In this document: piece after piece, positions 7,424-32,939 of the stretch | How the letters are laid out: each line of letters opens with the position of its first letter | Position numbering within the stretch: the first letter of the stretch is position 1 | NCBI GenBank assembly: GCA_013823245.1 | Contig: PNLU01000004.1 | Coordinates: forward strand, 1-64,000 | Direction of reading: 5' to 3' | Source of the DNA: Alcanivorax sp. | GTDB taxonomy: Bacteria; Pseudomonadota; Gammaproteobacteria; Pseudomonadales; Alcanivoracaceae | Length of the DNA: 64,000 nt | Translations under genes and position numbers: made by a program | Notes under the pieces: generated by a model | Databases searched by the model: none | What the model was told of the DNA's origin: nothing | What the model saw: only the letters and a program-made list of their open reading frames with translations

Positions 7424-7961
7424 ACGGTTGGTGCAATCCTACAGCAGGCATATATCCATTCCTTGGCGGGACGATGCGGCTGCAGCACAGCGCGTTATCT
7501 TCTGTGTTTACAACGAGAACGAGGAGCGCTGGCTCCGGGCCCGGGTCGATGAGTTTGAAATTGTCACCAAACAGGCCGGTCACGCCTGGGCGCTGTTCGA
7601 TTTAACCAACACTTTTGCAGCCTGGCTCAGTAGCCAGCGTTATGCCAAGAGCTACTTCCAGCAGCCGCATTTATTGGCCACTGTACTGCCCAAGTATCTC
7701 GATTACATCGTGGATGAATTCGAGCGCTTTCTGGACAGCCGCAATATTGATGAGAGCGCTGTGGTAGCAATCCAGGGCGTCGGGTCACTGTTCGGCTTCC
7801 TCAAGGTGAAGGATGTGGTCGACAAGCTTGCTCCCCGGGTACCCGGGCGGTTGCTGGTGTTTTTCCCTGGAAGCTACGAAAACAACAACTACCGACTGCT
7901 GGACGGTTACGATGGGTGGAACTATCTCGCCATGCCCATCACGGCGGATAAGAATGTCTGA
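7410..7961 (+). CDS. brxB: BREX protein BrxB (DUF1788)
   Basis: A 183-residue protein with the DUF1788 signature: RVIFCVYNENEERWLRAR near residue 30, and the C-terminal GRLLVFFPGSYENNNYRLLDGYDGWNYLAMPI. BrxB is a conserved core BREX protein of unclear biochemical role. The start is GTG 7410, 14 bases inside brxA. The preceding GAAGAGGAG serves as ribosome site. The gene is followed 14 bases later by brxC. Confidence 0.9.
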   Translation: MSRVKRLVQSYSRHISIPWRDDAAAAQRVIFCVYNENEERWLRARVDEFEIVTKQAGHAWALFDLTNTFAAWLSSQRYAKSYFQQPHLLATVLPKYLDYIVDEFERFLDSRNIDESAVVAIQGVGSLFGFLKVKDVVDKLAPRVPGRLLVFFPGSYENNNYRLLDGYDGWNYLAMPITADKNV

Positions 7962-7975
7962 ACAAGAGGTTGTTA

Positions 7976-10900: not shown

Positions 10901-11413
10901 TTCCGGGCTCAGGTGGAAACCATTGAACAGCAGCGACAGTTGCTGACCGACCCCGACCCGGTGGCCCCGCTGATTACCAGCCTGACACAGGCGCTCCGGG
11001 ATGCGCTGAATCGACTGGACCAGGATTACAAGAAGCGCCACGAGCAAGGCATGGCTCGTCTGGCCGATGACAGCAACTGGCAGCAACTGGAGCCCGAACA
11101 GCGAAACCAGCTGTTGGCAGACCAGCGCCTGACCCTGGCCGATCAGCCCGAGGTCGCGGTTCAATCCACCCAAGAGGTGTTGAACACGCTGGATCAGTGC
11201 GCTCTGGCCATGTTTGCCGATCGCGTCGCCGCACTTCCCAGCCGCTTTGACAATGTGGCCGTGGCGGCAGCCGAGCTGTGCGAGCCGGAGATACAGTTTA
11301 TCCATGTACCCCGCCGCACGCTGAAGTCTGACGCAGACATCGATGCCTGGGCCGAGGAAGTGAAGCAACAACTCAAGGCCGCGCTGCCAGACGGGCCCAT
11401 TTCAGTCAAATAA
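7976..11413 (+). CDS. brxC: BREX P-loop ATPase BrxC
   Basis: A 1145-residue protein of normal BrxC length. Walker A GFYGSGKSH is at residues 76-84 and Walker B LTLVVLDEVQQF near 265. A long helical, charged C-terminal half follows, with coiled-coil stretches after about residue 900. BrxC is the large AAA-type ATPase required for BREX phage restriction and, in several systems, for methylation. I start at ATG 7976 because AAGAGG (7964-7969) is 6 bases upstream; the in-frame TTG at 7970 would leave no room for a ribosome site. The stop lies inside a 16-bp tandem repeat. Confidence 0.92.
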   Translation: MKNRDIYQKDPATRKLVNEGVASVNDETTSHALAVLRYELETFVCDGQYEKGMSHILETYLKNIDQAQQPAVWVSGFYGSGKSHLVKMLRALWVDTVFEDGATARGIAQLPQGISDHLRELSTQAKRHGGLHAASGTLGSGASGSVRLALLRILFKSVDLPEQYPVARFVMWLRHEGIYDQVRKQVEANGFDWNEELDNFYVAEGLHDALVQAKPALFTSPASCVETLNNLYPYVQDISSDDMLKAIRQALTQEGKFPLTLVVLDEVQQFIGEDSQRSIAVQEVVEACCKNFAGKLLFIGTGQTAVTGTSNLKKLEGRFTIRVELSDADVDAVIRQVILAKKPEAKSPIEQIMQTNLGEISRHLAGTTLGHRQDDLPYFPQDYPILPVRRRFWENTLRVLDQTGTDSQLRNQLSMVHKVIQTNLEAPLGYVVPADYLYFDSADKLLQSRILPRKVHEKTMSWIKGSDDERLMARACGLVFLINKLGGQNNEVGIRATVDSLADLLVEDLSSGSSSLRSKLPGLLDRCELLMKVGDEYRIQTEESAAWTDEFLSQRAALSSEAHRIHAERDDRIRRTFGEAARKLSLVQGDAKVTRDIYPVFDAQLPDDADQRICVWVRDGWSGDENSVRADARQAGNQSPTVFVFIPKRSADDLRHHLIDFKAASATLDKRGVPNTPEGTEARAAMETTKQTAEGKIRELLNEAFSGARVFQGGGNEILGNDLQEMILEAANNALQRLYPHFHTADHAGWSKVYEKAQKGAPDALKAVGDDGEPAKNPVCKAILAAIAGGKKGADIRTHFESSPYGWSRDAVDGGLQALLVAGLIRAQDERGQPLEPSSLERKSIGKTLFKVESATVTTPQRIQIRKLLQKVGLSAKQGEELAYVPQFLQKLSDLADEAGGEAPKPERPDTSFLDDIRLTAGNEQLVALYNRREELASNIETWEHLSERIHQRWPNWAILKRLMSHAGGLDDADVFRAQVETIEQQRQLLTDPDPVAPLITSLTQALRDALNRLDQDYKKRHEQGMARLADDSNWQQLEPEQRNQLLADQRLTLADQPEVAVQSTQEVLNTLDQCALAMFADRVAALPSRFDNVAVAAAELCEPEIQFIHVPRRTLKSDADIDAWAEEVKQQLKAALPDGPISVK

Positions 11414-11450: not shown

Positions 11451-13184
11451 ATGACTTCATCCATGAGGACCGCCGCCAACATAGAGTCCCTGCTCCCGGA
11501 ACTGGAGCACTGCATAGCCGACGACCTGGAAGACCAGGACCTCGACTTCAAGCAGTGGGACACGCAAAGCCGCGACAAAGCGGTGAGAACCGTGGTCCAG
11601 ATGGCCGTATGCATGGCCAATGGCGGCGGCGGTACCGTGGTGTTTGGGGTGGCCGACCGGTCCCAGGGGCGTGAGAGTGCCATTATCGGCGTTCCGCCGG
11701 AAATCGACATCAACCTGCTGAAAAAGGCGGTTTACGACCAGACGGACCCGAAAATAACCCCGGTATTCGAAGAGCTGGCCGTACCGGAAGGCACCGGTCG
11801 CCTGCTGCTTATGCAGATCTACCCCGGCATGCCGCCCTACACCGACAGCTCTGGCCGGGGCACCATCCGTGTAGGCAAGGATTGCCAGCCGCTCACTGGC
11901 ACCTTGCGCCGCAAAATCGGCGTGGAAACGGGCGAGACCGATTACACCGGCGAAGCCGTCTCCCCCGTGGACAACCAGTTACTATCCGCCACCGCCCTCG
12001 AGTCCCTGCGTAATCAGGCCCGCAAGGAGCGGGCGCCGGAGGACCTGCTACGCCTGACCGATGTTGAACTGCTCTCCACCTTGGGCCTGATCAAGCACGG
12101 CAAACTGACTCGCGCGGCGCTGTTGTTGGCCGGTACCGAAGCCGCCATTCGGGAGCATCTTCCCGGCCACAACTGGACGTTCCTGCAAATGACTTCGGAT
12201 ACCGAGTATGGCATCCGGGAGGATCGGGTCAGTGCCTTGCCATTGTCCGTTCAGCGCATTGAAGAACTGCTGGTCCCCTTCAACCCCATCACCACCTATC
12301 AGCAGGGCCTGTTCCACTACGAATACCGCACCTGGCCGGAAGTCGCCGTGCGCGAGGCCCTGATGAACGCCTTCTGCCACGCGGATCTACGCATCGCTGG
12401 GCCGGTGATGGTCAAACTTTACCCGGACCGGCTGGAAATCAGCAACAACGGGGGCTTCATTGCTGGCATTACTCCCAACAATATCCTCCATCACCAGCCC
12501 GCCGCCCGAAATCCGCTGCTGGTGGAGGCCCTGACCCGCCTACGCCTGGTCAACCGCAGCAACCTGGGAATAAACCGCATGTTTTCCGCCTTGCTCATTG
12601 AGGGCAAGGAACCGCCACAGATCCGCGAAATCGGTGAATCCGTGCTGGTGAGCTTCCCCAAGCGGGACCTGAATGCCGCCTTCCGTCTGTTCGTGGCCGA
12701 GGAGAGCGAGCATGGCCGCAACCTGGGCGTGGACGAGCTCCTGCTGTTGCAATACCTGTTGCAGCACCCGGAGTTGGATACCGGCACCGCCTCCGCCCTG
12801 TGCCAGCGCAGCGAGGCGGAAATCCGCGAGCGGCTCTCGGCCATGGAGTCAGCCGGCTACATCGAGCATGGCGGCACTGGCCGGGGGGCCTATTGGTGCG
12901 TTCACCCGGATCTCTACAACCGTCTGGCCGAAGACGGCCAGGGCGAGGCCCGCCGACGCATCGACTGGGAGGCCGCCAAAACCCGCGTGCTCAGTATTCT
13001 GATGGAGCGCGCACGCCGCAACGAGCCGGGCCTGAGCAACAAGGAAATCCGGCAAATCACGCGCTTTGACCGCAACCAGGCCCGGCGCCTGATGCAGGAG
13101 CTGATGCAGGAGAACACCGGCCTCCAGCAGGTGGGTGAGCGGCGCTGGGCGCGCTATGAGTACAGCAATGCGCATCAGCATTGA
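11451..13184 (+). CDS. AlbA_2/ATP-binding accessory protein in the BREX operon
   Basis: A 577-residue protein. The N-terminus has an AlbA_2 (Schlafen-type) domain: EDQDLDFKQWD at 27-37 and ANGGGGTVVFGVAD at 56-69. In the middle is a GHKL-type ATP-binding domain of the HATPase_c_4/AAA_4 class (VREALMNAFCHADL near 299-312, DRLEISNNGGF near 330). The C-terminal 170 residues look like tandem winged helices (ALCQRSEAEIRERLSAMESAGYIEHGG). Such proteins are annotated as ATP-binding or RecG-like transcriptional regulators. Position between brxC and pglX, a known accessory site in BREX operons, suggests a defence or regulatory role. The start ATG follows AAGGGGA. GC content matches brxC, so it may be an old member of the operon. 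Confidence 0.75.
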   Translation: MTSSMRTAANIESLLPELEHCIADDLEDQDLDFKQWDTQSRDKAVRTVVQMAVCMANGGGGTVVFGVADRSQGRESAIIGVPPEIDINLLKKAVYDQTDPKITPVFEELAVPEGTGRLLLMQIYPGMPPYTDSSGRGTIRVGKDCQPLTGTLRRKIGVETGETDYTGEAVSPVDNQLLSATALESLRNQARKERAPEDLLRLTDVELLSTLGLIKHGKLTRAALLLAGTEAAIREHLPGHNWTFLQMTSDTEYGIREDRVSALPLSVQRIEELLVPFNPITTYQQGLFHYEYRTWPEVAVREALMNAFCHADLRIAGPVMVKLYPDRLEISNNGGFIAGITPNNILHHQPAARNPLLVEALTRLRLVNRSNLGINRMFSALLIEGKEPPQIREIGESVLVSFPKRDLNAAFRLFVAEESEHGRNLGVDELLLLQYLLQHPELDTGTASALCQRSEAEIRERLSAMESAGYIEHGGTGRGAYWCVHPDLYNRLAEDGQGEARRRIDWEAAKTRVLSILMERARRNEPGLSNKEIRQITRFDRNQARRLMQELMQENTGLQQVGERRWARYEYSNAHQH

Positions 13185-13335: not shown

Positions 13336-16300
13336 ATGCAGCCACTCGACAAGACTCTGAGAAGCCAGTTGGAGCGCGCCGTTAAGGCCGCCCGGGACAC
13401 CGCCGAAACCGGTGCCCACGCCGCCCTGGAGCAGCTCGGCGTTGGCGACCCGGCACCGGCCTCGCACTTGAGCGAGACCGACCGGGAGCTGCGCCGCAAG
13501 CTACGCGCCCATGGCCGCCAACTGGGCGACGCCCTCAACGGTGGCAAGGTCCAGAGCATGGACCGTCTGGTGGAAGAGGTTGCCTACGAGCACTGGCACC
13601 GCATGCTCTTTGCCCGCTTCCTGGCGGAAAACGACCTGCTGATGTATCCGGATCCGGACGAACCGGTAGCCATCACCCTGGAAGAGTGTGAAGACCTGGC
13701 TGCCGATGAAGGCGCCGCCAACGGCTGGGAACTGGCCGCCCGCTATGCGGCCCGTATGCTGCCGCAGATTTTCCGGCTGGACTCTCCGGTCTTCCAGCTC
13801 ACCCTGCCACCGGAACACCAACAGGCTCTGGAACGCCTGGTCGCGGGCCTGCCGCTGGAGGTGTTCACCGCCTCCGACAGCCTGGGCTGGGTCTACCAGT
13901 TCTGGCAGGCCAAGAAAAAGGAGCAGGTCAACCAGTCCGAGGTCAAGATCGGCGCCCGGGAGCTCCCCGCCGTCACCCAGCTCTTCACCGAGCCCTACAT
14001 GGTCAGCTTCCTGCTCGACAACGCCCTCGGTGCCTGGTGGGCGGCCCGGCAGCTCAGTGAAAGCGACCTGAAGAATGCCCAAAGTGAAGAAGAGCTGCGC
14101 CAGAAGGCCGCCATTCCTGGCGTGCCCCTGGAATATCTGCGATTCGTAAAAGTTCCCTCTCCCCTCGCGGGAGAGGGCCAGGGAGAGGGGGAAGAAATTT
14201 GGACCCCGGCTGCCGGCACCTTCGATGCCTGGCCGGAACAACTGGCCGAACTGAAAACCCTGGACCCCTGCTGCGGCTCCGGCCACTTCCTGGTGGCCGC
14301 CTTCCTGATGCTCGTGCCCATGCGCATGGAGCGCGACGATTTGTCCGCTCGGGACGCCGTGGATGCGGTGTTGCGAGAGAACATTCATGGCCTGGAGCTG
14401 GATCAGCGTTGTGTGGAGCTGGCTGCTTTCGCGTTGGCCTTTAGCGCTTGGAAATATCCTGCCTCGGGTGGATATCGAGTTCTACCACAACTGCATTTAG
14501 CTTGCTCAGGTCTATCCATCAGTTCTAAGAAGAGTGATTGGCTTGCGCTTGCAGAAGACAAATCCGACTTACACTTGGCTTTGGAAGAGCTTTATAAGCA
14601 GTTCAAAGACGCTCCACTCTTAGGGAGTCTGATCAACCCTAGAGCTAATTTAAATAAGGGGTCCTTGTTTGAACTGAGCTGGTCAGAGGTGGGGCCAGTC
14701 CTTAACGAAGCATTATCGCAAGACGTCAATTTCGAACGCTCTGAAATGGCAGTGGTTGCAAATGGCTTAGCAAAAGCGGCCGACATCCTTCAAGGAAACT
14801 ATGATCTGGTTTTTACCAATGTGCCATTTCGGCAATCTGATGATTTTGAAGGAAAAATCAGTGAGTTCTTTAAAATCAACTATGCTCTATCAAAATCAGA
14901 TATAGCGACTGTCTTTCATCAACGAATTTTTGATTTCTTAAAACCTTCTGGGATCGTTTCCCTGGTAATGCCCCAAGGATTTATATATAAAGATTACTAC
15001 TCTAAGTATCGCAAGCATATTTTTTCAAAGAAAAGATTTTCAGTCTTGTCAAGGCTGGGGGCTCGAGCATTTGAAGAAATTTCTGGAGAAGAAGTTAAGG
15101 TCATCCTTTCAATAGCTGAGAACAAAATTCCATCAAAGGAAGATTATATTTTCCAGATCGATGCAACAAATGGTGACTCGGAAATCAAAAAAGTTGCACT
15201 ACAAAAAGAAGGTCTGTCTTGCTTAAAGCAATACGAATGTCTGATAAGCAAAAAGCACATTCTCACCTATGAGAGTAATGCTGAAAATAACTCTCTTTTA
15301 GAGGATTACGCCACCTTCTCAAATGGAATACAGACAGGTGACTACCCCAGGTTTGGAAAGTTTTTCTGGGAGATTCCCGAGATTACACCTGAATGGGAGC
15401 TTCAGTTATCTACAGTAAATGAGTCAACATCATATGGTGGAAGAGAACGCTGCCTATTCTGGGGGAAAGGAGAGCTTGTTCATTTTGTTGAGGAAAAACT
15501 AGGAGAAGGTAAAGCTGGCTCTTGGATCAGAGGAACCTCATGCCGAAACAAAAAAGGCGTAGCAATAAGCGCTATGGGGGAAGTGAAGGCAACCATATTC
15601 AATGGGGAGATATTTGATGATAACACCGTTGTCATCATTCCAGATGATGAGGCTTATCTTCCGGCTGTCTGGGAGCTATGTTCTTCGTATGAGTATAATG
15701 GCCTCGTTCGGGAGGTTGATCAGTCGAACAAGGTGCGAGGTGCATTGCTACGAGTTCCGTTCCAGATAAAAGCCTCGGATTCACTGGAGACCTGCTTACC
15801 TCAACCCGCTAGTGACGAGCCATTTCAATGGATCTTCCACGGCCACCCCTGCGGTTCAGTTGTGTGGGACGAAGAAGAAAAGTGGACAGTCTTAGGCCCA
15901 CTCCGCACCGACGACACAGTCCTGCAAGTCGCCGTTGCCCGTCTGCTCGGCTACCGCTGGCCCGCCGAACTGGATGCCGACATGGAACTGGCCGAAGAGC
16001 AGCGTGAATGGGTTAAGCGCTGCGAAACCCTGCTGTCCATCGCCGATGAAGACGGCATTGTCTGTATTCCCCCGGTGCGCGGTGAGGCCTCAGCCGCCGA
16101 CCGCCTGCTGAACCTGCTGGCTGCTGCATATGGCGAGGCCTGGTCCACCGACGTTCTGGCAGAGCTACTAAAGAATGCCGACCACGCCGGCAAAACCCTG
16201 GAAACCTGGCTTCGGGACAAGTTCTTCACGCAACATTGCAAACTGTTCCAGCACCGCCCCTTTATCTGGCACCTCTGGGACGGCTTGCCCGACGGCTTCG

Positions 16301-16773
16301 CCGCCCTGGTCAACTACCACAAACTGGATCGCAAGAACCTGGAAACCCTGATCTACACCTATCTGGGGGACTGGATCAGCCGCCAGAAGCAGGACCTGGC
16401 CAGCGGCGTCGACGGCGCCGAAGAACGCCTGGCCGCCGCCGAATCCCTGAAGAAGAAGCTGGAACAGATCCTCGAGGGCGAAGCACCCTACGACATCTTC
16501 GTGCGCTGGAAGCCCACTGAACAACAGCCCATAGGCTGGGACCCGGACCTCAACGACGGCGTCCGCCTCAACATCCGCCCCTTCATGACCGTAGGCGACG
16601 TCAAAAAGAAAGGCGCCGGCGTCCTGCGCGACAAACCCAACATCAAATGGACGAAAGACCGTGGCAAGGATGTTGAGTCAGCGCCCTGGTACCAGACGTT
16701 CAAAGGTGAGCGGATTAATGACCACCATCTGACGTTGGCCGAGAAGAAATCTGCGAAGGAGGTGTCAGAATGA
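13336..16773 (+). CDS. pglX: BREX adenine-specific DNA methyltransferase PglX
   Basis: A 1145-residue protein of the expected PglX length. SAM-binding motif I is DPCCGSGHF at about residues 310-318. Motif IV reads FTNVPF with Asn495, in place of the textbook NPPY/F. The last 300 residues are a helical domain ending in KWTKDRGKDVESAPWYQTFKGERINDHHLT, typical of PglX. It methylates an adenine in the BREX recognition sequence, marking host DNA. Base composition is mosaic: about 37-40 % GC in sampled lines between roughly 14.41 and 15.88 kb, against above 60 % on both sides. A palindromic repeat at 14155-14191 is read through in frame as SPLAGEGQGEGE. The stop overlaps the next start (ATGA). Confidence 0.9.
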   Translation: MQPLDKTLRSQLERAVKAARDTAETGAHAALEQLGVGDPAPASHLSETDRELRRKLRAHGRQLGDALNGGKVQSMDRLVEEVAYEHWHRMLFARFLAENDLLMYPDPDEPVAITLEECEDLAADEGAANGWELAARYAARMLPQIFRLDSPVFQLTLPPEHQQALERLVAGLPLEVFTASDSLGWVYQFWQAKKKEQVNQSEVKIGARELPAVTQLFTEPYMVSFLLDNALGAWWAARQLSESDLKNAQSEEELRQKAAIPGVPLEYLRFVKVPSPLAGEGQGEGEEIWTPAAGTFDAWPEQLAELKTLDPCCGSGHFLVAAFLMLVPMRMERDDLSARDAVDAVLRENIHGLELDQRCVELAAFALAFSAWKYPASGGYRVLPQLHLACSGLSISSKKSDWLALAEDKSDLHLALEELYKQFKDAPLLGSLINPRANLNKGSLFELSWSEVGPVLNEALSQDVNFERSEMAVVANGLAKAADILQGNYDLVFTNVPFRQSDDFEGKISEFFKINYALSKSDIATVFHQRIFDFLKPSGIVSLVMPQGFIYKDYYSKYRKHIFSKKRFSVLSRLGARAFEEISGEEVKVILSIAENKIPSKEDYIFQIDATNGDSEIKKVALQKEGLSCLKQYECLISKKHILTYESNAENNSLLEDYATFSNGIQTGDYPRFGKFFWEIPEITPEWELQLSTVNESTSYGGRERCLFWGKGELVHFVEEKLGEGKAGSWIRGTSCRNKKGVAISAMGEVKATIFNGEIFDDNTVVIIPDDEAYLPAVWELCSSYEYNGLVREVDQSNKVRGALLRVPFQIKASDSLETCLPQPASDEPFQWIFHGHPCGSVVWDEEEKWTVLGPLRTDDTVLQVAVARLLGYRWPAELDADMELAEEQREWVKRCETLLSIADEDGIVCIPPVRGEASAADRLLNLLAAAYGEAWSTDVLAELLKNADHAGKTLETWLRDKFFTQHCKLFQHRPFIWHLWDGLPDGFAALVNYHKLDRKNLETLIYTYLGDWISRQKQDLASGVDGAEERLAAAESLKKKLEQILEGEAPYDIFVRWKPTEQQPIGWDPDLNDGVRLNIRPFMTVGDVKKKGAGVLRDKPNIKWTKDRGKDVESAPWYQTFKGERINDHHLTLAEKKSAKEVSE
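14155..14191 (+). repeat. Dispersed palindromic repeat inside pglX
   Basis: CCCTCTCCC (14155-14163) and GGGAGAGGG (14169-14177) form a perfect hairpin with loop CTCGC, followed by a second GGGAGAGGGGG (14181-14191). Its translation SPLAGEGQGEGE is the familiar product of a repeat scattered through many proteobacterial genomes. It lies in frame, just upstream of SAM motif I. Confidence 0.75.
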
Positions 16774-19604
16774 GCGCACAATACAAAGGAATGTGCTGGC
16801 TGAAGTGTGATCTCCAGATGCAGACGCCAGCAGATGCTCGTCATTGGCAAGGAGATCGTATTGAACCAGGTGAGGAAGCTGCTGCAGCAAAAGCATTCGC
16901 AGAGGCCTGCTATCGGGCCGGACTAGACATAGTTGGGATAACTGATCACAACTTTCTAAGTAGAGAGTTTATTCCCCACCTGCAACGCGCTTTTGCGGCA
17001 CTTAAGCGCGAGCGTGACCACAGCATCGCCCTGTTTCCTGGGTTTGAGTTTGAGGCCGCCGGAGTTGGGCGTGGGGTTCACATACTCTGCTTGTTTGAGC
17101 CTACGGCTGAGTTAGCCAAACTCGACTCTATCCTCACTGAGTGTGGAATTGCGTATCCAAGAGTTGGAGCAGACGGGCAACTGGCAAAATCCGACAAAAA
17201 TCTGAAAGACATATTGCGCATTGTTCAAGAAAAGCATGGAGGCATCGTGATAATGCCTCACGCGATGAGCAATGATGGAATTTTTGACAACGAATCTATT
17301 TCAGACTGGTTGCAGCAAGATCAGTTTACCAATCCTGAGTTGCTGGCCATTGAAGTTCCAAAGCCTGTTCACCTGATGTCAGCAGGATATCAACGTTTGC
17401 TGAAGTCAGGGGGGGATTGTCAACCAGGGTGGAGACGTGTACGCCCGATAGCAACGCTGATGTCCTCGGACAATAAGAAGCTAATTGACTGTGATCATGA
17501 CGAGGCACCAACACCCAACAGTATTGGTTACCGATATTCGTGGATAAAAATGTCGGCCCCTTCCATAGAATCGCTTCGGCAGGCATTTCTTGATCACCAG
17601 TCCCGCATTGTTTTGCCGGAAAATGTGGTGACAGATGTACATCCTGCCAATCGTGTTCGCCAAGCGGCAATTCGGTCTCTCTCAATTAAGAACGTAGCTT
17701 TCTTGGGCGATCAAGAGATTCACTTCTCACCAAACATGAACTGTGTGATTGGTGGTCGCGGAAGCGGCAAATCCACCTTGCTTGAATACCTGCGTATTAT
17801 TTTTGGCAAGGATAAGTCAGAGGACATTGATGCGGACACGAAAAGCCGAATCAAACGGGTTCGGGACACTCTGAACCAACCAGAAGCAGAGCTTGAAGTG
17901 TCTTGGGTCAGCGCTGATGGCGTAGAAGACCGTATCGTATGGCAAAACGGACAGCCTGCTGTCCAACGTGACGATATGCATGATCCTGAAACGTTCTTCC
18001 AGAGCTTGCCTATCCGCTTTTTCAGTCAACAGCAGCTCAACCGTCTCACCGAGTCAAAAACGGGGGATGACGGGCAGATACCCCAGGCACAGCGCCTGTT
18101 GGAACTGGTCGACGGGTTCGCTACAAACGAACTTGCTGATCTGGATGATCAGGAACGAAAGCTGAAACTTAAAATACAGGCATCGTTTTCCAATCTTCGG
18201 CAAGCCAAAGCGTTAGAGAAAGATCTCAAAAAATCCCAGCAGGAATATCAGGAGCTTGATCGCCAGTGGAAAGCACGAAGTGAGATTCAGGCCGATGCAA
18301 TCAGGCACCAAAAACTAAAGGCGGAAAGCCGTTATCTCGACTCGCTTTATGGAGATCAAGGGAGGCAGTTCGCAGATGTTGCCGAGCTCGCGGACGTTGT
18401 AGCGAACTCCCATGCTTCGTTTCAGGTTGAAAATGCACCCCATGGTCCTTGGCTTGAGCAGCTTGACGAGAAGGTCAAACAGGCCAAAGAGAGTCTTGCA
18501 AAGCATATTCGCCAAGCTGTAGAGCAGTACCAGAAAAATGTTGAATCGTTCAAGGCCGATGACCCTACTTGGAGCGCGATCCAGCAGGATCTTGATCAGG
18601 CCGATACCAACTTTAGTCAGGCATGCGCCGCCAAGGGGCTGACCCCTGACGATGTGGGTCACTTAAAGGAAGTTGATCAAGCCAGGGCCAAGAAGCACAG
18701 AGAAATTACTGAGCTTCAGGCTGAAATCAAGAGATTGAAAGACGAGGCTGGCGACCCCGAGACGCAGGTCCAGCGATTACATCAAATTTGGCAGGAACAG
18801 CTACAAAAACGGGTTGAAGCTGCGAATCGCGCAAATGATCTAGCCGTTCTGACTGAGGAGCAGCGCAAGTTCATAGAAGTGACGGTGCAATATCAGTTTG
18901 ACCAGGCTAGTTTCTCCGAGCTATGGAATCACTTTGGTCCTAAAGACGGTCGAACCGCCCTGGCCCGCTCATGGAGCGACATAGGGCAGGCACTGATGGA
19001 CCGATTCAGCCAGATACCAGACTGTAATCGCACCTCCCCCTGGGAGCTGTTGAGGAATCTCTACCATGAGAATGACGGAGAGGGCGCTCGGCAACTTTTT
19101 CAGAATCAGGCAGACAACCTAAAGCAGCACATCGTGGAAAACATAGAGAGCTGGGACCAGCTTCGGTTATCTCGTGTGAAGGATGTCGTTGATTTAAAAC
19201 TGTTTCGATCTGATGGCTCAGTTGCTGGGAGCATCTCTGAAGGCTCTCTTTCCGACGGTCAACGTAATACCGCCGCGCTCGCCTTACTGTTAGCTCAGAA
19301 TGGTGGCCCCCTTGTGATAGATCAGCCCGAAGATGAACTGGACTCCAACTTCGTGTTCAAGGAGCTGATACCAATGCTTCGCAAGGTAAAAGCCGGTCGC
19401 CAAATCATACTGGCAACCCACAATGCAAACCTGCCGGTAAATGGTGATGCCGAGTTGGTATATGCACTCGAAGCCAAGGATGGGAAGGGGGTTATCCGGG
19501 CAGAAGGCGGGCTTGACCAATCCGATGTTACTGCCGCTGTCCTCGACATCATGGAGGGTACAGAAGAGGCTTTCCGGCGTCGACGGGAAAAGTATCATTT
19601 CTAG
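16770..19604 (+). CDS. TrlF-like PHP-SMC ATPase
   Basis: A 944-residue protein. Residues 10-280 are a PHP-type domain: GLDIVGITDHNFLS at 51-64 and IVIMPHAMSNDGIF near 155. Its first motif reads CDLQMQTP instead of the metal-binding HxH. From about 290 an SMC/RecF-like ATPase follows, with Walker A GGRGSGKST near 327, coiled coil about 430-690, signature SEGSLSDGQRNTAAL near 830, Walker B GPLVIDQPEDELDS, and a final His switch ILATHNANLP. This is the TrlF architecture, seen in defence neighbourhoods; activity unknown. The start overlaps the pglX stop (ATGA). GC is near 45-50 % in sampled lines, lower than the BREX core, and shared with the next gene, so the two probably arrived together. Confidence 0.75.
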   Translation: MSAQYKGMCWLKCDLQMQTPADARHWQGDRIEPGEEAAAAKAFAEACYRAGLDIVGITDHNFLSREFIPHLQRAFAALKRERDHSIALFPGFEFEAAGVGRGVHILCLFEPTAELAKLDSILTECGIAYPRVGADGQLAKSDKNLKDILRIVQEKHGGIVIMPHAMSNDGIFDNESISDWLQQDQFTNPELLAIEVPKPVHLMSAGYQRLLKSGGDCQPGWRRVRPIATLMSSDNKKLIDCDHDEAPTPNSIGYRYSWIKMSAPSIESLRQAFLDHQSRIVLPENVVTDVHPANRVRQAAIRSLSIKNVAFLGDQEIHFSPNMNCVIGGRGSGKSTLLEYLRIIFGKDKSEDIDADTKSRIKRVRDTLNQPEAELEVSWVSADGVEDRIVWQNGQPAVQRDDMHDPETFFQSLPIRFFSQQQLNRLTESKTGDDGQIPQAQRLLELVDGFATNELADLDDQERKLKLKIQASFSNLRQAKALEKDLKKSQQEYQELDRQWKARSEIQADAIRHQKLKAESRYLDSLYGDQGRQFADVAELADVVANSHASFQVENAPHGPWLEQLDEKVKQAKESLAKHIRQAVEQYQKNVESFKADDPTWSAIQQDLDQADTNFSQACAAKGLTPDDVGHLKEVDQARAKKHREITELQAEIKRLKDEAGDPETQVQRLHQIWQEQLQKRVEAANRANDLAVLTEEQRKFIEVTVQYQFDQASFSELWNHFGPKDGRTALARSWSDIGQALMDRFSQIPDCNRTSPWELLRNLYHENDGEGARQLFQNQADNLKQHIVENIESWDQLRLSRVKDVVDLKLFRSDGSVAGSISEGSLSDGQRNTAALALLLAQNGGPLVIDQPEDELDSNFVFKELIPMLRKVKAGRQIILATHNANLPVNGDAELVYALEAKDGKGVIRAEGGLDQSDVTAAVLDIMEGTEEAFRRRREKYHF

Positions 19605-19612
19605 GGGGTAGT

Positions 19613-21307
19613 ATGGCTAAGAAGATAAGTGGCGCCGAGTATCCACTCGCAAAGATTTTTAGCTCTGAGTTTGAATATGTCATTCCTTCCTATCAGCGTC
19701 CGTATGCCTGGACTGTTGATCAGGCATCAGAGCTATTTGATGACCTTTTTGATTTTTATCGATCAGATCTGGATGAAGGGTATTTCCTCGGCAGTATTGT
19801 CCTCATCAAAGAGGAAGGAAAACCGGCCGCAGAAGTTATTGATGGTCAACAGCGACTGACAACTCTCACAATACTGCTGGCCGCATTGGCAGCACGCTCC
19901 ACGTCAGATGATAGAGCGTTGCTAAAGAATTACATTGTCGAAGCTGGAAACAAATTCGAGCAGTTAGCCGCAAAGCCGCGCCTTACGCTTCGCGAGCGGG
20001 ATAAAGAGTTTTTTGCAAAGTACGTGCAGACGCTTCAGTTCGACGATCTACTGGATCTCAACACCGAGTCACTTCAGAACGAATCTCGGAAGAATATCCA
20101 AGCCAACGCCCGGTTGTTACTGAGTCGGATCGATCGGTCCTTCGGTGACGATATGTCATCACTTGAGGGGTTTGTTGGTTTCTTGCTGCAGCATTGTTTC
20201 CTGGTAGCAGTCTCAACTCCTAGCCAGCAGTCAGCATTTCGCGTTTTCTCCGTCATGAATAGCCGCGGCCTTGATTTACAACCTACTGACATCATCAAGG
20301 CCGACATCATTGGCGCGATTGAGTCCTCGGATGAGCAAGAGCTTTACAATGAGAAATGGGAGGACATGGAAGTTGAGCTGGGCCGTTCCGGCTTTAATGA
20401 CCTGTTCGCCTACGTTCGGATGGTCTATGCCCGCGAAAAAGCCAAGAAGGCCCTGCTGGAAGAGTTCAGGCAACATGTTCTGTCCAATGTGCCGTCACCT
20501 AAAGCTTTGGTCGATGAAGTGCTGGAACCTTATGCGGAGGCCTTATCGATTCTGCGTTCCGCAAGCTACCAGGCAGAGGTGGATGCCCAGAAGATTAATA
20601 CCTACCTGCGTTGGCTTAACCGAATCGATAACTCTGACTGGGTGCCAACGGCCATGCTTTTCTTATCCCAACAAAAGAACAGACCGGATTACGTTCTGTG
20701 GTTTGTGGAGAAGCTTGAACGGCTTGCTGCCTGTCTGCATCTGACCGCAAAGAATGTGAATGAACGGATCGAGCGCTATTCCACTGTGATCTCAGAATTG
20801 ATGGGAGATCACAACGTGGACAACCCTGTGCAGGCGGTTTTGCTGACTAAGGGAGAAAAGCAGGAAATGGGGAAAGTTCTCGATGGGGATATATACACAC
20901 TTACCGCACGAAGGAGAAATTACCTGATTCTTCGGTTGGACTCGTTTTTGTCGGATGGTGCAGCCAGCTACGATGCAAGCCTGTTAACCATTGAGCATGT
21001 GCTGCCGCAAACGGTAGATGCGGAAAGCCAATGGCAAAAAGATTGGCCAGACGCTCAGGCAAGAGATGCTTGGGTTCACCGCTTGGCGAATCTGGTTCCC
21101 CTGAACAAACGGCGCAATTCTCAGGCTCAAAATTACGATTTCGACCGTAAGAAAGATGCTTATTTCCGGGGGCGATCTGGGGTTAGCTCCTATACGTTAA
21201 CGACCCAGGTGCTCAGTGAAAACGAATGGACGCCCGAGGTTGTATCGAACAGACAAAATGAGCTTTTGGGACTTCTTACAGACAAGTGGGAGTTAGGAGC
21301 ATGTTAA
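19613..21307 (+). CDS. DUF262-DUF1524 type IV restriction-like protein (BrxU/GmrSD family)
   Basis: A 564-residue protein. The N-terminal DUF262 domain has IPSYQRPYAW at 24-33 and DGQQRLTTL at 77-85, the ParB/sulfiredoxin-like NTPase motifs of GmrS. The C-terminal DUF1524 domain has an HNH-type nuclease motif: LLTIEHVLPQ near 457-466, then LANLVPLNKRRNSQAQNYDF. Fused DUF262-DUF1524 proteins include BrxU, which cuts glucosylated, hydroxymethylated or methylated phage DNA and sits between pglX and pglZ in the E. fergusonii plasmid BREX locus. The same position here makes a BrxU-like role likely. Its start is 8 bases after the TrlF-like gene, behind GGGGGT. Confidence 0.82.
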   Translation: MAKKISGAEYPLAKIFSSEFEYVIPSYQRPYAWTVDQASELFDDLFDFYRSDLDEGYFLGSIVLIKEEGKPAAEVIDGQQRLTTLTILLAALAARSTSDDRALLKNYIVEAGNKFEQLAAKPRLTLRERDKEFFAKYVQTLQFDDLLDLNTESLQNESRKNIQANARLLLSRIDRSFGDDMSSLEGFVGFLLQHCFLVAVSTPSQQSAFRVFSVMNSRGLDLQPTDIIKADIIGAIESSDEQELYNEKWEDMEVELGRSGFNDLFAYVRMVYAREKAKKALLEEFRQHVLSNVPSPKALVDEVLEPYAEALSILRSASYQAEVDAQKINTYLRWLNRIDNSDWVPTAMLFLSQQKNRPDYVLWFVEKLERLAACLHLTAKNVNERIERYSTVISELMGDHNVDNPVQAVLLTKGEKQEMGKVLDGDIYTLTARRRNYLILRLDSFLSDGAASYDASLLTIEHVLPQTVDAESQWQKDWPDAQARDAWVHRLANLVPLNKRRNSQAQNYDFDRKKDAYFRGRSGVSSYTLTTQVLSENEWTPEVVSNRQNELLGLLTDKWELGAC

Positions 21308-21335
21308 AGCCCGAGCGAGACCGGAGCTGTACTGC

Positions 21336-23678
21336 ATGAGAGTTTTGGATCACCTGCTTGTAGCCATTCGTGATGCGGCTACGTTCAATCCCGATATCCA
21401 GGTCGCCCCTTCCTGCATCCTCTGGCCGGACCGTGACCGTCAATGGGAAGCAGTTATCCCAGTCCTTCAGGCGGAACTGCCAGAGCTTCTGGTACTGGGT
21501 GACTATGCCCCCGAAACACGCACCGGCCCGGCAATCTGGCTGCGCTGCGTGATCGCCGGCTTGGTGGATGATATGTCCCTGCCAGATGGGGCGATACCCA
21601 TTCTCTACCTGCCCGGCGTCAGTCGCCAGGACTTGCGGGCAGTGGAAGGCTGCCCGGACTCGCTCAAGCCTCTGGCCGAGCTTCAATACCGTGGCGTGAT
21701 CTGGTCCCAGGTGAATGCCAAGGACTGGACCATCCTTGCCTACCTAAAGTCGGACCAGGGTGGTCTTGGCCTGGATGTGGCACAGGACAGCGAAACGCGG
21801 CACGCCATGCAACTGGCGCTGTACCGACTGCTCGACGAAGACGTCGTCTTGCTCAAGGGCAAACGCCTGGATAAGGACTACTTCAATACCCTGTTAACCG
21901 GCGGCGATCCCACCCGGGATCTGCTGTTGTGGCTGGACCAGGGCGATGCGTTCCAGGCCGCGAGGGGTGAGAACGAATGGCAGGCTTTTGTGGCGGTATG
22001 CACCTCCCAGTTGGCTTTCAACCCGCAGCATGAGGGTGTGCTGGCTGGGTGTGCCAAGCTTGCGGCCCACGAGGGGCCTTGGCAGGCGGTTTGGCAACGT
22101 TTCTGCGAGGCGCCCCACCGCTACCCCCATATCCCGGCCCAAATTCGCAAATGCCAACCGCCGGCCTTTGATCTGTTTGCCGATGAAACCGTGGCCGGTG
22201 GCTGGCCTCAATGGAACCAGGGCCAGGAAGACCACCTGCGCCGTGACTTGCAGGCTCTGGCCCAGTCTCCTGCGCACCAGGCACGGGCCAGGATACTGGA
22301 GATCGAACAGATACACGGCGGCAGGCGATCACTGGTATGGGCGGAGCTCGGTGAAGCCCCGCTGGCTTGCGCGTTGGAGCATTTGGCCACCATGGTCAAC
22401 TATGCAAAAACCTCTCTGGCGGCGGGTTCTGTGGATGATCTGGCAGACGGGTATACCAACGCCGGCTGGAAAGTGGATGACGGCGTAATGCGCGCCTTGG
22501 CCCAGGTGGAAAGCTCGGCTGACTTTGAGGCTGTCACAACGGCAGTCCGGGCAGTTTACCTGCCCTGGCTGGAGGAGTCCTCCCGCTACCTGCAGAAGAT
22601 CGTTGATGGCGCATCCTACCCGGGTGGCTCCTGCACAACAGCGCCCCCATTTCCGGCAACTCCCGGCGATTGTGTGCTGTTTGTCGACGGGCTGCGCTTC
22701 GATACGGGCAAGCGGTTGGCAGAGATGCTGGAAGCTTCAGGGCTGGATGTGGACGAGGCGCCCACCTGGGCCGCTTTGCCCAGCGTCACCGCCACTGGCA
22801 AGGCAGCGGTGACGCCGGTACGGGATAAAATTCGGGGGGACGATGGCAGCGCGGATTTCGAGCCCGCCGTGGCGGCGACCGGCCAGTCCCTCAAAGGTGG
22901 CTATCACCTCAAGAAACTGCTGAAGGACGCTGGTTGGACGCTTTTGGATCGAACCGAGGACGGCCAGGGGGAAGGTTTCGCCTGGTGTGAGTTTGGTGAC
23001 ATCGACCATGAAGGTCACGACCGTGGCTGGAAGCTGGCCAAACACCTGGAAAGCCTTTTGCAGGAAGTGCAAGACCGCATTACCGAGCTATTGGCGGCGG
23101 GCTGGAAGCGAGTGCGCGTCGTCACCGATCACGGCTGGCTGCTTCTGCCCGGGGGGCTACCCAAAATTGACCTGCCCAGCGTACTGGCTGAAAGCAAATG
23201 GGGGCGCTGTGCCGCACTGAAGGCCGGAGCGGAAACTCAGGAGCGACTGTTCCCCTGGTACTGGAACCCCAGTCACTACTTTGCCCTGGCCGATGGCATC
23301 AGCTGTTTCAAGAAAGGTGAGGATTACGCTCACGGCGGCCTGAGTCTACAGGAGTGTCTGACACTCCAATTGGTGGTGACGGGTGGCGCCTCAGCTCAAG
23401 GGGCCATCGAGTTTACCGACCTGGTGTGGAAAGGGTTGCGCTGCACGGTGGCGGTGGCCGGTGACTATTCAGGGCTCACGCTGGATATCCGTACCCGCGC
23501 GGGTGAGGTGGCCAGCAGCGTGGTGGTCGGTTCGAAGCCGCTCAAGGCTAATGGCACCGCTTCCGTGGTTGTCGAAGATGAAGATCTGGAAGGGCAGAAA
23601 GCGGTGGTTATTCTGCTCGACGAAAATGGTTCTCTGGTTGCCCAGACGGGCACTGTGATAGGTGGGGGGCAAGAGTAA
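21336..23678 (+). CDS. pglZ: BREX phosphatase-like protein PglZ (type B)
   Basis: A 780-residue protein of the alkaline-phosphatase superfamily. The PglZ domain spans roughly residues 440-650: CVLFVDGLRFDTGKRLAEML (metal-binding Asp), PSVTATGKAAVTP (candidate nucleophile region), DIDHEGHDRGW, and RVVTDHGWLLLPGGLP. The N-terminus (CILWPDRDRQWEAVIP, LLVLGDY) matches the PglZ type B group found in type 1 BREX. PglZ is essential for BREX; its cellular substrate is unresolved and nuclease activity has been reported for a relative. It begins 28 bases after the DUF262 gene and overlaps brxL by one base (TAATG). Confidence 0.9.
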   Translation: MRVLDHLLVAIRDAATFNPDIQVAPSCILWPDRDRQWEAVIPVLQAELPELLVLGDYAPETRTGPAIWLRCVIAGLVDDMSLPDGAIPILYLPGVSRQDLRAVEGCPDSLKPLAELQYRGVIWSQVNAKDWTILAYLKSDQGGLGLDVAQDSETRHAMQLALYRLLDEDVVLLKGKRLDKDYFNTLLTGGDPTRDLLLWLDQGDAFQAARGENEWQAFVAVCTSQLAFNPQHEGVLAGCAKLAAHEGPWQAVWQRFCEAPHRYPHIPAQIRKCQPPAFDLFADETVAGGWPQWNQGQEDHLRRDLQALAQSPAHQARARILEIEQIHGGRRSLVWAELGEAPLACALEHLATMVNYAKTSLAAGSVDDLADGYTNAGWKVDDGVMRALAQVESSADFEAVTTAVRAVYLPWLEESSRYLQKIVDGASYPGGSCTTAPPFPATPGDCVLFVDGLRFDTGKRLAEMLEASGLDVDEAPTWAALPSVTATGKAAVTPVRDKIRGDDGSADFEPAVAATGQSLKGGYHLKKLLKDAGWTLLDRTEDGQGEGFAWCEFGDIDHEGHDRGWKLAKHLESLLQEVQDRITELLAAGWKRVRVVTDHGWLLLPGGLPKIDLPSVLAESKWGRCAALKAGAETQERLFPWYWNPSHYFALADGISCFKKGEDYAHGGLSLQECLTLQLVVTGGASAQGAIEFTDLVWKGLRCTVAVAGDYSGLTLDIRTRAGEVASSVVVGSKPLKANGTASVVVEDEDLEGQKAVVILLDENGSLVAQTGTVIGGGQE

Positions 23679-25720
23679 TGGAATTGGACGATATCGACAG
23701 AAAGGCCGCAACGGCCCTGGATGGCTACCTGGTGCGAAAGGACCTGGTACGAACCTTCAGCCGCCAATTCCCGGTGCCCACCTATGTGGTCGAGTTCCTG
23801 CTCGGGCGGTATTGCGCGAGCACCGACCAGGAAGAGATCAACGAAGGCCTGGAGATCGTGCAGCGGCAACTCAAATCTCGCACCGTCAAGGCCGGTGAGG
23901 AAGAGCTGTTCAAGGCCCGGGCAAGGGAAAACGGTGAAGTCAAAATCATCGACCTGATTACCGCCCGCCTGGATGCGAAAACAGACTCCTATATCGCGTC
24001 TCTTCCCAGCCTCCGCCTGAACGACGTGCGGATCTCACCGTCTTTGGTAAACGAGCACGAGCGGATGCTGACCGGCGGTTTCTATGCCGAGGTAACGCTC
24101 AATTACGATGCTGCCATTGCCCAGGAAAGTAATGGTCGCCCCTTCGGTGTCGAAGCCCTGCGGGAGATCCAGCTCTCCAAGCGCGACGTTTTGGATACCC
24201 TTGCAGAGGCCCGGAAGGAATTTACGACGCAGGAGTGGAAAGAGCTGCTGCTAAGGTCCACGGGGATTGAGGCTAGCGGCCTGTCGGAGCGGCAAAAGGA
24301 CGCAATTTTGTTGCGTATGGTGCCCTTTGTTGAGCGTAACTATAACTTGGTGGAGCTCGGCCCCAGGGGGACCGGTAAGAGCCATTTGTTCCAGCAGGTG
24401 TCACCCTACGCCCACCTGATTTCCGGTGGTAAGGCCACGGTGGCCAAGATGTTCGTAAACAACGCCAGCGGCCAGCGGGGTTTGGTCTGTCAGTACGACG
24501 TGGTCTGCTTCGATGAGGTCTCGGGTATTTCCTTCGACCAGAAGGACGGCGTGAACATCATGAAGGGCTACATGGAGTCCGGTGAATTCAGCCGTGGCAA
24601 GGAAAACATCCGAGCCGACGGCAGTATCGTGTTGGTGGGCAACTTTGACGTGGATGTGGAACACCAGCAGCGGATCGGGCACCTGTTCGGCCCCATGCCA
24701 CCGGAGATGAAGGATGATACAGCCTTCATGGACCGTATCCACGCCTTCTTACCAGGCTGGGACGTGCCGAAAATCAGTAAGGAGCTGTTAACCGACCATT
24801 TCGGCCTGGTCAGCGACTTCCTATCCGAGTGCTGGAGTCAGCTGCGCAATCAGAGCAGGGTCAGCCTGATCCAGAACCGGGTGTTTTTTGGTGGCGCGCT
24901 GTCTGGGCGGGATACCAATGCGGTGAACAAAACGGTCAGCGGCCTGCTCAAACTGCTTTATCCTGGTGACGATGAGGTCTCGGACGAAGATATCGAATGG
25001 GCCGTTCGCATTGCCATGGAAGCCCGGCGTCGGGTGAAGGAACAGCAGAAGCGGATTGGTGCGGCAGAATTCAGGAATACCCATTTCAGCTATGTCATGG
25101 GCGCCGACGGTGTCGAGAAGTTTGTTTCCACTCCGGAACTCCAGAGCGAGAACAGTATTGGTGACGATCCCTTGGAACCTGGCCAGGTATGGACTATCTC
25201 TCCAGGAGGCGGAGAGGAACATCCCGGCCTGTACCGGATTGAGGTGAACGAAGGCCCAGGGTCCGGCGTCAAGGTCCTGAACAAGCCGGTACCGCCCGCG
25301 TTCAAGGAAAGCATCGGTTATGCGGAGCAAAACCTGTACGCCCGGTCGGCGCAACTGGTAGGCGACAAGGATCCACGCCACCACGAGTTTACGGTTCAGT
25401 TGCGGGCTTTCGATGCCTCCAAATCAGGCGCCAAGCTTGGCATGGCGTCTCTGGTCGCATTGAGCACGGCGCTACTGAAGAAGAGTGTGCGCGGCGGTTT
25501 GATCATTGCGGGTGAGATTAACCTGGGAGGCTCTGTGGAGCCGATCCATAATCCAGTGGCGATCGCGGAAATCGCCGTGGAGAAGGGCGCGACTGCATTG
25601 CTGATGCCCGTTGCCTGTCGCCGGCAGCTGTTTGACCTGTCGGATGACATGGCGACAAAGATCGATATTCAGTTTTATTCCGATGCGCGGGATGCTCTGC
25701 TCAAAGCCATTGTGGAGTAG
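23678..25720 (+). CDS. brxL: BREX Lon-like AAA+ protein BrxL
   Basis: A 680-residue protein. An N-terminal DNA-binding-type region is followed by an AAA+ core with Walker A GPRGTGKSH near 228-236 and Walker B VVCFDEVSG near 277. The C-terminal 110 residues resemble a Lon protease domain (GLIIAGEINLGGSVEPIHNP). In that domain the Lon serine motif (GPSAG) is replaced by GAKLG and the catalytic lysine is not evident, so proteolysis looks unlikely. This fits the view of BrxL as a DNA-translocating AAA+ ring. It is the last gene of the operon; a hairpin lies 65 bases downstream. Confidence 0.9.
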   Translation: MELDDIDRKAATALDGYLVRKDLVRTFSRQFPVPTYVVEFLLGRYCASTDQEEINEGLEIVQRQLKSRTVKAGEEELFKARARENGEVKIIDLITARLDAKTDSYIASLPSLRLNDVRISPSLVNEHERMLTGGFYAEVTLNYDAAIAQESNGRPFGVEALREIQLSKRDVLDTLAEARKEFTTQEWKELLLRSTGIEASGLSERQKDAILLRMVPFVERNYNLVELGPRGTGKSHLFQQVSPYAHLISGGKATVAKMFVNNASGQRGLVCQYDVVCFDEVSGISFDQKDGVNIMKGYMESGEFSRGKENIRADGSIVLVGNFDVDVEHQQRIGHLFGPMPPEMKDDTAFMDRIHAFLPGWDVPKISKELLTDHFGLVSDFLSECWSQLRNQSRVSLIQNRVFFGGALSGRDTNAVNKTVSGLLKLLYPGDDEVSDEDIEWAVRIAMEARRRVKEQQKRIGAAEFRNTHFSYVMGADGVEKFVSTPELQSENSIGDDPLEPGQVWTISPGGGEEHPGLYRIEVNEGPGSGVKVLNKPVPPAFKESIGYAEQNLYARSAQLVGDKDPRHHEFTVQLRAFDASKSGAKLGMASLVALSTALLKKSVRGGLIIAGEINLGGSVEPIHNPVAIAEIAVEKGATALLMPVACRRQLFDLSDDMATKIDIQFYSDARDALLKAIVE

Positions 25721-30645: not shown

Positions 30646-30651
30646 GCGGCT

Positions 30652-32863: not shown

Positions 32864-32939
<76 letters not shown>

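What the first reader, a model, noticed from the sequence alone, without database searches (positions are those of the whole stretch)
16770..21307. TrlF-like PHP-SMC plus DUF262-DUF1524 pair nested as a low-GC module inside BREX
The two genes sit between pglX and pglZ, are 8 bases apart, and share about 45-50 % GC in sampled lines against about 57-67 % in brxC, pglZ and brxL. The DUF262-DUF1524 gene occupies the BrxU position; the TrlF-like neighbour is an addition. They may form a separate two-gene defence module (an SMC-like sensor with an HNH nuclease) that uses the BREX operon as its carrier.
Basis: inference. Interest (0 to 1): 0.78.

Follow-up and report, generated by a model that had tools for sequence, protein, structure and literature searches.

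The report
Swappable defence genes inside BREX operon
Two extra anti-phage genes sit inside a bacterial BREX defence operon, but comparison with related genomes suggests they are two separately exchanged add-ons sharing a cargo slot rather than one two-part machine, and one of them also travels inside ordinary restriction-modification operons.

Summary
In detail: trlF (16770-19604) and a GmrSD gene (19613-21307), 8 nt apart, lie between pglX and pglZ of a type I (PglZ-B) BREX operon and are low in GC (0.500; 14 of 589 sampled genome windows are as low). Reading them as one two-gene module is only partly supported. A 91.5%-identical trlF sits alone, with gene-exact borders, behind hsdS in a type I R-M operon. 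A sister BREX in Salinicola keeps trlF but has Septu (ptuAB) exactly where gmrSD is. Other BREX operons carry gmrSD without trlF. The gene after trlF is AlbA/Schlafen in 26 of 53 TrlF loci outside the window's lineage, gmrSD in 0. "BrxU position" is wrong: brxU lies between brxC and pglX. For the pair: two MAG loci share a 5.1-kb tract without a called difference that holds both genes whole, and an archaeal plasmid has trlF next to DUF262. Best reading: pglX|pglZ is a cargo slot loaded with two autonomous back-ups, an SMC-type ATPase whose PHP region lost metal ligands and a type IV nuclease with intact motifs. Functions are inferred, not tested.

The parts
6578..7423 (+). brxA (281 aa)
   Evidence: PADLOC BrxA 6.9e-111
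7410..7961 (+). brxB (183 aa)
   Evidence: Pfam BrxB 2.3e-8; PADLOC 7.2e-82
7970..11413 (+). brxC ATPase (1147 aa)
   Evidence: NCBIfam NF033441 985 bits, cut-off 400
11451..13184 (+). albA: SLFN_AlbA_2 + HATPase_c_4 protein (577 aa) between brxC and pglX; accessory; 19-25% identical to 25 trlF-adjacent AlbA proteins
   Evidence: 75% identical protein in a BREX without trlF (L099)
13336..16773 (+). pglX adenine methyltransferase (1145 aa)
   Evidence: PADLOC PglX 1665 bits; NF033452 335 bits, below its cut-off of 500
14459..15825 (+). low-GC (0.424) middle part of pglX, presumed target-recognition region, without DNA match in the three close relatives, whose match resumes at 15826 in each
16770..19604 (+). 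trlF: N-terminal PHP-like region with lost metal ligands + SMC/ABC ATPase head and predicted coiled coil (944 aa); start overlaps pglX stop (ATGA)
   Evidence: NF045780 558.8 bits; motifs
19613..21307 (+). gmrSD: DUF262-DUF1524 type IV restriction enzyme family (564 aa), motifs DGQQR, EHVLP, N...N present
16774..21335 (+). pglX|pglZ cargo slot; empty in L095-L097, other cargo in other BREX loci
21336..23678 (+). pglZ type B (780 aa)
   Evidence: NCBIfam NF033450 971 bits, cut-off 400
23678..25720 (+). brxL Lon-like (680 aa)
   Evidence: Pfam BrxL_ATPase 1.3e-133, BrxL_N 8.7e-45

Best explanation
The pglX|pglZ junction of this type I (PglZ-B) BREX operon is an exchangeable cargo slot, and here it holds two self-contained anti-phage genes with separate histories rather than one two-gene machine. 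(1) GmrSD most likely cleaves phage DNA carrying base modifications that would shield it from BREX, as shown by others for BrxU; its motifs are intact, but its substrate is inferred. (2) TrlF is an SMC/ABC-type ATPase whose N-terminal PHP-like region has lost several presumed metal ligands yet stays under purifying selection. It is most likely a sensor or back-up unit that works independently of the particular methyltransferase beside it, since nearly the same protein sits behind an unrelated HsdS and stays conserved while the PglX middle region is swapped. Its commonest companion gene elsewhere encodes an AlbA/Schlafen-GHKL protein, the likeliest effector of that module; in this operon only a distant AlbA protein, upstream of pglX, could play that part. 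Shown by sequence comparison: the separate exchange of each gene and the slot. Inferred: every molecular activity.
For: trlF exchange: 91.5% DNA identity between the window and G521 over window 16782-19600 of the ORF 16770-19604, no blastn match in the flanks; G521 is hsdR-hsdS-trlF-albA-hsdM; Lacimicrobium L034 likewise behind hsdS (76.5% DNA). gmrSD exchange: the Salinicola BREX matches up to the trlF stop (19604) and again from 21333, with ptuA-ptuB between. gmrSD without trlF: BREX loci L007, L099; hsdM-hsdS-gmrSD-hsdR L006; between a methyltransferase and a helicase gene in L037; apart from R-M or BREX genes in L038-L040. Slot: empty in L095-L097, ptuAB in L094, McrB-like + McrC in L092 (L093 similar by annotation), trlF-albA in L070, L081, L101, AIPR-ptuAB-trlF-albA in L059. 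Partner: AlbA at +1 of 26 of 53 other TrlF genes against 2 of 300 at the other seven positions; GmrSD at +1 in 0 of 53; 29 of 29 AlbA proteins scanned, 25 of them trlF-adjacent, match SLFN_AlbA_2. BREX or BREX-related TrlF need at least 8 label changes over supported branches in a 61-row tree. dN/dS 0.110 for trlF window-G521, 0.116 in the PHP region. PHP motif loss, ATPase motifs conserved.
Against: L035 and L036 share a 5068-bp tract without a called difference that holds trlF and gmrSD whole and the start of pglZ, so here the two moved together (MAG contigs, 12 undetermined bases in L035); recombination through homologous flanks would carry any cargo, but it is what a pair would do too. trlF and a GmrSD-type gene also share a BREX slot in G530 (one gene between them, 23% GmrSD) and are adjacent on a haloarchaeal plasmid, so recurrent functional pairing is not excluded. 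dS of gmrSD between window and L035/L036 (0.047) is lower than that of trlF (0.22) and pglZ (0.19-0.29), which fits separate exchange, but dS also varies along trlF (0.09 in the coil), so recombination tracts blur gene borders. No activity was tested; the AF2 model of TrlF was unusable (mean pLDDT 39).
Confidence: 0.7

Rival explanations
1. One reading: trlF and gmrSD are one two-gene module (SMC-like sensor plus HNH nuclease) that rides in the BREX operon.
For: 8-nt spacing, similar low GC; shared 5.1-kb exchange tract holding both genes in L035/L036; adjacent trlF-DUF262 in Halapricum; trlF and a distant gmrSD in the same slot of G530.
Against: Each gene found without the other in relatives, with gene-exact borders; 0 of 53 other TrlF genes followed by GmrSD; gmrSD as common in BREX lineages without trlF (3 of 9) as with it (2 of 6); a combined trlF+gmrSD query found no plasmid record covering 80% of it, and one two-gene place in the 40 rows shown of 1862 records.
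Confidence: 0.18
2. TrlF is a PrrC/RloC-like guard: translated directly behind the specificity subunit (HsdS or PglX), it senses when phage inhibitors disable the modification system and fires an abortive response through an AlbA/Schlafen RNase. (Compatible with the cargo-slot reading; it is a claim about mechanism.)
For: Start overlaps the stop of pglX or hsdS by 1-4 nt in the window, L033-L036, L070, L081, G530, G521 and L020; 12 of 53 sampled TrlF genes lie in R-M or BREX operons, a lower bound; AlbA partner in 26 of 53; PrrC and RloC are ABC-ATPase tRNases tied to type I or III R-M (abstract and passages of PMC2610378).
Against: 41 of 53 sampled TrlF genes showed no R-M or BREX neighbour with my tags; no RNase domain was found in TrlF by Pfam; the window AlbA is a distant subfamily and a BREX without trlF has a 75% identical one.
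Confidence: 0.22
3. TrlF is a true BREX component in this lineage, assisting PglX or PglZ.
For: Lies inside the operon, overlapping pglX; BREX-linked TrlF are slightly clustered in the tree (12 of 500 shuffles as low).
Against: 93% identical protein in a type I R-M operon with no BREX gene detected by tblastn in the 40 kb fetched; three of eight complete PglZ-selected BREX loci have an empty slot; the PglX middle region is swapped while TrlF is conserved.
Confidence: 0.08

Closest known systems
Type I BREX with accessory type IV enzyme BrxU (plasmid pEFER)
   Same: GmrSD-family nuclease embedded in a type I BREX operon with an upstream WYL regulator; complementary protection reported there (abstract and passages, PMC8565348)
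   Different: brxU lies between brxC and pglX and pEFER has PglZ type A; the window gene lies between trlF and pglZ with PglZ type B; the best alignment of the two proteins is about 100 residues at 29%; no trlF annotated among the BREX genes of pEFER
Auxiliary and backup effectors of BREX (Rakesh and Krishnan 2026, PMC12839542)
   Same: GmrSD, Schlafen and OLD-ABC + HNH dyads described as embedded BREX effectors (abstract, passages and part 1 of 2 of section 35 seen)
   Different: 'PHP' has 0 occurrences in its main text and no held paper has both TrlF and BREX; supplements not seen; gene-exact exchange with R-M operons is not in what I read
TrlF family AAA-like ATPase (NF045780) and Ppl (NF042955)
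   Same: Full-length match over the NF045780 cut-off; PHP-like region + ABC/SMC ATPase
   Different: PHP HxH is QxQ and the SDxH position is SDNK in the window type; Ppl score 238 against a cut-off of 1000
PrrC and RloC anticodon nucleases linked to R-M systems
   Same: ABC or Rad50-like ATPase embedded with or linked to R-M genes (passages)
   Different: No anticodon-nuclease domain found in TrlF by Pfam; possible RNase partner is a separate AlbA/Schlafen protein
Septu (PtuA-PtuB)
   Same: Occupies the very same slot in the sister BREX of Salinicola
   Different: Unrelated gene pair

Membership tests
Type I BREX (PglZ type B) | brxA, brxB, brxC, pglX, pglZ, brxL in one operon | tested here: met
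   (pglX below the NCBIfam NF033452 cut-off but 1665 bits in PADLOC)
TrlF family (NF045780) | score over curated cut-off across the full model | tested here: met
   558.8 bits, cut-off 350, positions 1-944 of 944
TrlF family (NF045780) | ABC ATPase motifs (Walker A, Q-loop, signature, Walker B, H-loop) | tested here: met
   G328, G333, K334, Q420 in 57 of 57; S828, G830, D851, H884 in 56 of 57
PHP phosphoesterase | metal-ligand motifs HxH and SDxH (recalled) | tested here: not met
   DLQMQTP and SDNK in the window; HxH in 38 of 57 TrlF, QxQ in 7 of 57; Pfam PHP match in 6 of 26 TrlF scanned, not in the window's
GmrSD type IV restriction enzyme | DUF262 (GmrSD_N) and DUF1524 (GmrSD_C) domains with DGQQR and HNH-type residues | tested here: met
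   (motif residues in 18 of 18 aligned; the broken gene of L037 not among them)
GmrSD type IV restriction enzyme | cleavage of modified DNA | not testable with these tools
   needs protein and modified phage DNA
BrxU orthologue | between brxC and pglX, similarity along the length | tested here: not met
Ppl | NF042955 score over cut-off | tested here: not met
   238 bits, cut-off 1000
Dedicated trlF-gmrSD module | pair recurs outside BREX and is kept together | tested here: not met
   0 of 53 other TrlF genes have GmrSD next; one archaeal pair in a DUF499/DUF1156 locus; joint exchange once in L035/L036
PrrC/RloC | anticodon-nuclease domain | tested here: inconclusive
   no nuclease domain in the window TrlF by Pfam; no usable structure model

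The most novel reading that the evidence does not exclude
TrlF is a portable guard for modification-based immunity: one gene, translationally coupled behind whichever specificity subunit is at hand (HsdS in type I R-M, PglX in BREX), which monitors the state of the modification system through its SMC ATPase and a ligand-stripped PHP domain and, when a phage disables that system, triggers a Schlafen/AlbA RNase: a split, two-protein counterpart of PrrC/RloC that is shared between R-M and BREX. The specificity-gene junction would then be a general docking site for such back-ups (TrlF, GmrSD, McrBC, Septu).
Probability: 0.2. Interest if true: 0.78.

Novelty: new variant of a known kind. Interest (0 to 1): 0.5.

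Why it matters
It shows at gene resolution how BREX operons are re-armed: core genes and operon order stay, while the middle of pglX and the genes in the pglX|pglZ slot are swapped. The same trlF behind hsdS and behind pglX points to back-up modules that do not care which modification system they ride on, and the three loci (window, Salinicola, G521) are a natural set for testing whether TrlF works alone, with GmrSD, or with AlbA.

Tried and rejected
Reading the pair as BrxU plus an extra: rejected, brxU lies elsewhere in its operon and the proteins barely align. The window albA (11451-13184) as the inherited TrlF partner: not supported, 19-25% identity to trlF-adjacent AlbA proteins, and a BREX without trlF has a 75% identical one. 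AF2 model of TrlF from five close sequences: mean pLDDT 39, not used for fold search. Close relatives in viral contigs: none for either protein, by a scan that reaches close relatives only. Krishnan 2020 on ABC ATPases (named from memory) is not held. 'TrlF' alone is in 149 held papers; none of the 20 listed titles is about phage defence (most are laser spectroscopy); 'TrlF family' is in none. The shorter TrlF-like genes (616-677 aa, below the NF045780 cut-off, matching from about position 281 on or later; L082-L090) and short or split ones (L031, L062, L079) were dropped before counting, as were all under 820 aa. Untagged ORFs under 130 aa were ignored in the neighbour counts. Tags come from profiles that I built from a few seed proteins, so missed neighbours are likely. 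The trlF of G1004 (L066/L101) was missed by my ORF caller and added by hand to the tree, the slot table and the 12-of-53 count, not to the counts. Of 14 untagged operonic upstream neighbours 10 were scanned with Pfam, so the R-M count is a lower bound. Of 8 plasmid PglZ hits 4 were fetched. BREX loci L098 and L100 were cut by contig ends and left out of the slot table.
Full report
What is there. The window holds a type I BREX operon with PglZ type B: brxA, brxB, brxC, an AlbA/Schlafen-GHKL gene, pglX, trlF, gmrSD, pglZ, brxL. trlF (16770-19604) starts inside the pglX stop codon (ATGA) and ends 8 nt before gmrSD (19613-21307). The pair has GC 0.500; 14 of 589 overlapping windows of equal size from 19 other contigs of the same genome are as low (mean 0.625). 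The middle of pglX (14459-15825) is lower still at 0.424.

Do the genes travel together? A scan for close TrlF relatives in the species-genome collection gave four loci, and one more close relative came from 390 genomes of the order (G521). L035 and L036 have the same operon with both genes. Salinicola salarius (L033) has the same operon (BrxC 99%, BrxL 99%, TrlF 95% identical) but ptuA-ptuB instead of gmrSD; DNA homology with the window ends at the trlF stop and resumes 3 nt before the pglZ start. G521 and Lacimicrobium (L034) have TrlF 93% and 80% identical with no BREX gene detected by tblastn in the fetched DNA: there trlF follows hsdS in type I R-M operons (hsdR-hsdS-trlF-albA-hsdM, and hsdR-hsdS-trlF-AAA-subtilase-HsdM-tagged gene). 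Window and G521 share 91.5% DNA identity over 16782-19600, with no blastn match in the flanks. So trlF moved as a single gene between a BREX and an R-M operon. Over 944 codons dN/dS is 0.110 (PHP region 0.116), which is purifying selection.

gmrSD has its own range. In BREX it occurs without trlF in L007 (71% identical) and L099 (69%). It lies behind an hsdS-tagged gene in L006 (hsdM-hsdS-gmrSD-hsdR), between a DNA-methyltransferase and a DEAD/DEAH helicase gene on an Acinetobacter plasmid, where it is broken into two frames, and apart from annotated R-M or BREX genes in the stretches fetched from Rhizobium, Gluconobacter and Methylorubrum plasmids. The 18 aligned GmrSD proteins keep DGQQR, EHxxP and the N...N residues.

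Evidence for joint movement. L035 and L036 show no called difference over 5068 bp, from 20 nt before trlF through gmrSD into pglZ, while the left and right flanks are 90.5% and 94.5% identical; 12 bases are undetermined in L035. This exchange carried both genes whole, though homologous recombination around the slot would carry any cargo. A combined query against 72,556 plasmid records found none covering 80% of it; among the 40 rows shown of 1862 records one was a two-gene place, on a Halapricum desulfuricans plasmid, where trlF is followed after 83 bp by a DUF262 gene between DUF1156 and DUF499 genes. DUF499 marks BREX-related systems in PMC12839542 (passages); that DUF1156 belongs to the same kind of system is my recollection. 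In G530 trlF and a distant GmrSD gene (23%) share the pglX|pglZ slot with one gene between them.

The slot. In the 18 BREX loci with a PglZ like the window's and a complete pglX-pglZ interval: empty in 3 (L095, L096, L097); gmrSD alone in 2 (L007, L099); DUF932 + gmrSD in 1 (L091); McrB-like + McrC in 2 (L092 by Pfam, L093 by annotation and layout); ptuAB in 1 (L094); trlF + albA in 3 (L070, L081 with pglX in pieces, L101); AIPR + ptuAB + trlF + albA in 1 (L059); trlF + one gene + gmrSD in 1 (G530); trlF + gmrSD in 3 (window, L035, L036); trlF + ptuAB in 1 (L033). L033, L035 and L036 were picked by TrlF similarity, L059 and G530 by a TrlF search, L007 by a GmrSD search, the rest by PglZ, so frequencies over all 18 are biased. 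Counting the window, L033, L035 and L036 as one lineage, gmrSD is present in 2 of 6 lineages with trlF and 3 of 9 without. In the eight complete loci of the PglZ-selected class sample of 369 genomes (10 places, two cut by contig ends) trlF is present in 4, gmrSD in 2, both in 1 (the window).

TrlF's usual partner. Among 53 other full-length TrlF genes (57 less the window, L033, L035 and L036) the next gene is a same-strand AlbA/Schlafen gene in 26, against 2 of 300 at the seven other positions within four genes; GmrSD is next in 0 of 53 and second in 1. The 29 AlbA proteins scanned, 25 of them trlF-adjacent, match SLFN_AlbA_2. The window's own albA is a distant relative of these (19-25%); a BREX without trlF (L099) has a 75% identical one in the same place. 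In a 61-row tree, TrlF genes in BREX or BREX-related loci need at least 8 label changes over supported branches (the archaeal row sits on a long branch), so TrlF probably entered such loci many times. Of 53 TrlF genes from sampled genomes (52 of those plus the one of G1004), 12 lie in R-M or BREX operons, a lower bound; 41 showed no such neighbour with my tags.

How it may work. TrlF keeps the ABC ATPase motifs in 56 or 57 of 57 aligned proteins at the key positions, but the window type has QxQ for the PHP HxH (7 of 57; HxH in 38 of 57) and SDNK for SDxH; that these are metal ligands is recalled PHP knowledge. The PHP part is therefore probably not catalytic here. Because nearly the same trlF sits behind an unrelated HsdS and behind PglX proteins with different middle regions, it is unlikely to be matched to one specificity. 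PrrC and RloC, ABC-ATPase tRNases silenced by or linked to R-M systems (passages of PMC2610378), are the closest functional precedent that I found; that TrlF-AlbA works that way is inference. GmrSD most likely handles modified phage DNA, as BrxU does (PMC8565348, abstract and passages).

Against print. The 2026 BREX survey (PMC12839542) describes GmrSD, Schlafen and OLD-ABC + HNH effectors (abstract, passages and part 1 of section 35 seen); 'PHP' has no occurrence in its main text. Searches for TrlF with BREX and for 'TrlF family' returned no paper. Supplements and subscription papers were not seen, so novelty is judged as a new variant, not as a new kind.

Noticed in passing
window 25895-32716 (-): A Wadjet-type set downstream of BREX: JetD_C (25895-27052), SbcC-like (26986-30645), DUF4194 (30652-31533), JetA (31271-32716); a tRNA-Thr follows at 32864-32939.
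   Followed up: partly
window 5267-6157 (+): WYL-domain regulator upstream of brxA; pEFER also has a WYL gene just before its BREX genes.
   Followed up: no
window 14459-15825: Low-GC middle part of pglX has no DNA match in the three close relatives; the match resumes at 15826 in each.
   Followed up: partly
L035:9981-15048 and L036:9981-15048: 5.1 kb without a called difference in two MAG contigs whose flanks differ: a recent recombination tract over trlF, gmrSD and the start of pglZ.
   Followed up: partly
L082, L083, L085-L089: A shorter TrlF-like ATPase (632-677 aa, below the family cut-off) is followed by two genes of the same sizes (377-379 and 305-314 aa) in seven loci, two of them in one genome: an unnamed three-gene set (the two genes were not compared by sequence).
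   Followed up: no
L103:11977-16463: Haloarchaeal plasmid with adjacent trlF and DUF262 genes between DUF1156 and DUF499 genes.
   Followed up: partly
L037:12001-13684: gmrSD between a methyltransferase and a helicase gene, downstream of Tn7-like transposition genes, is broken into two frames.
   Followed up: no
L092, L093: Two Bacteroidota plasmid BREX loci carry an AAA ATPase and a McrC-type or restriction-endonuclease gene in the pglX|pglZ slot.
   Followed up: partly
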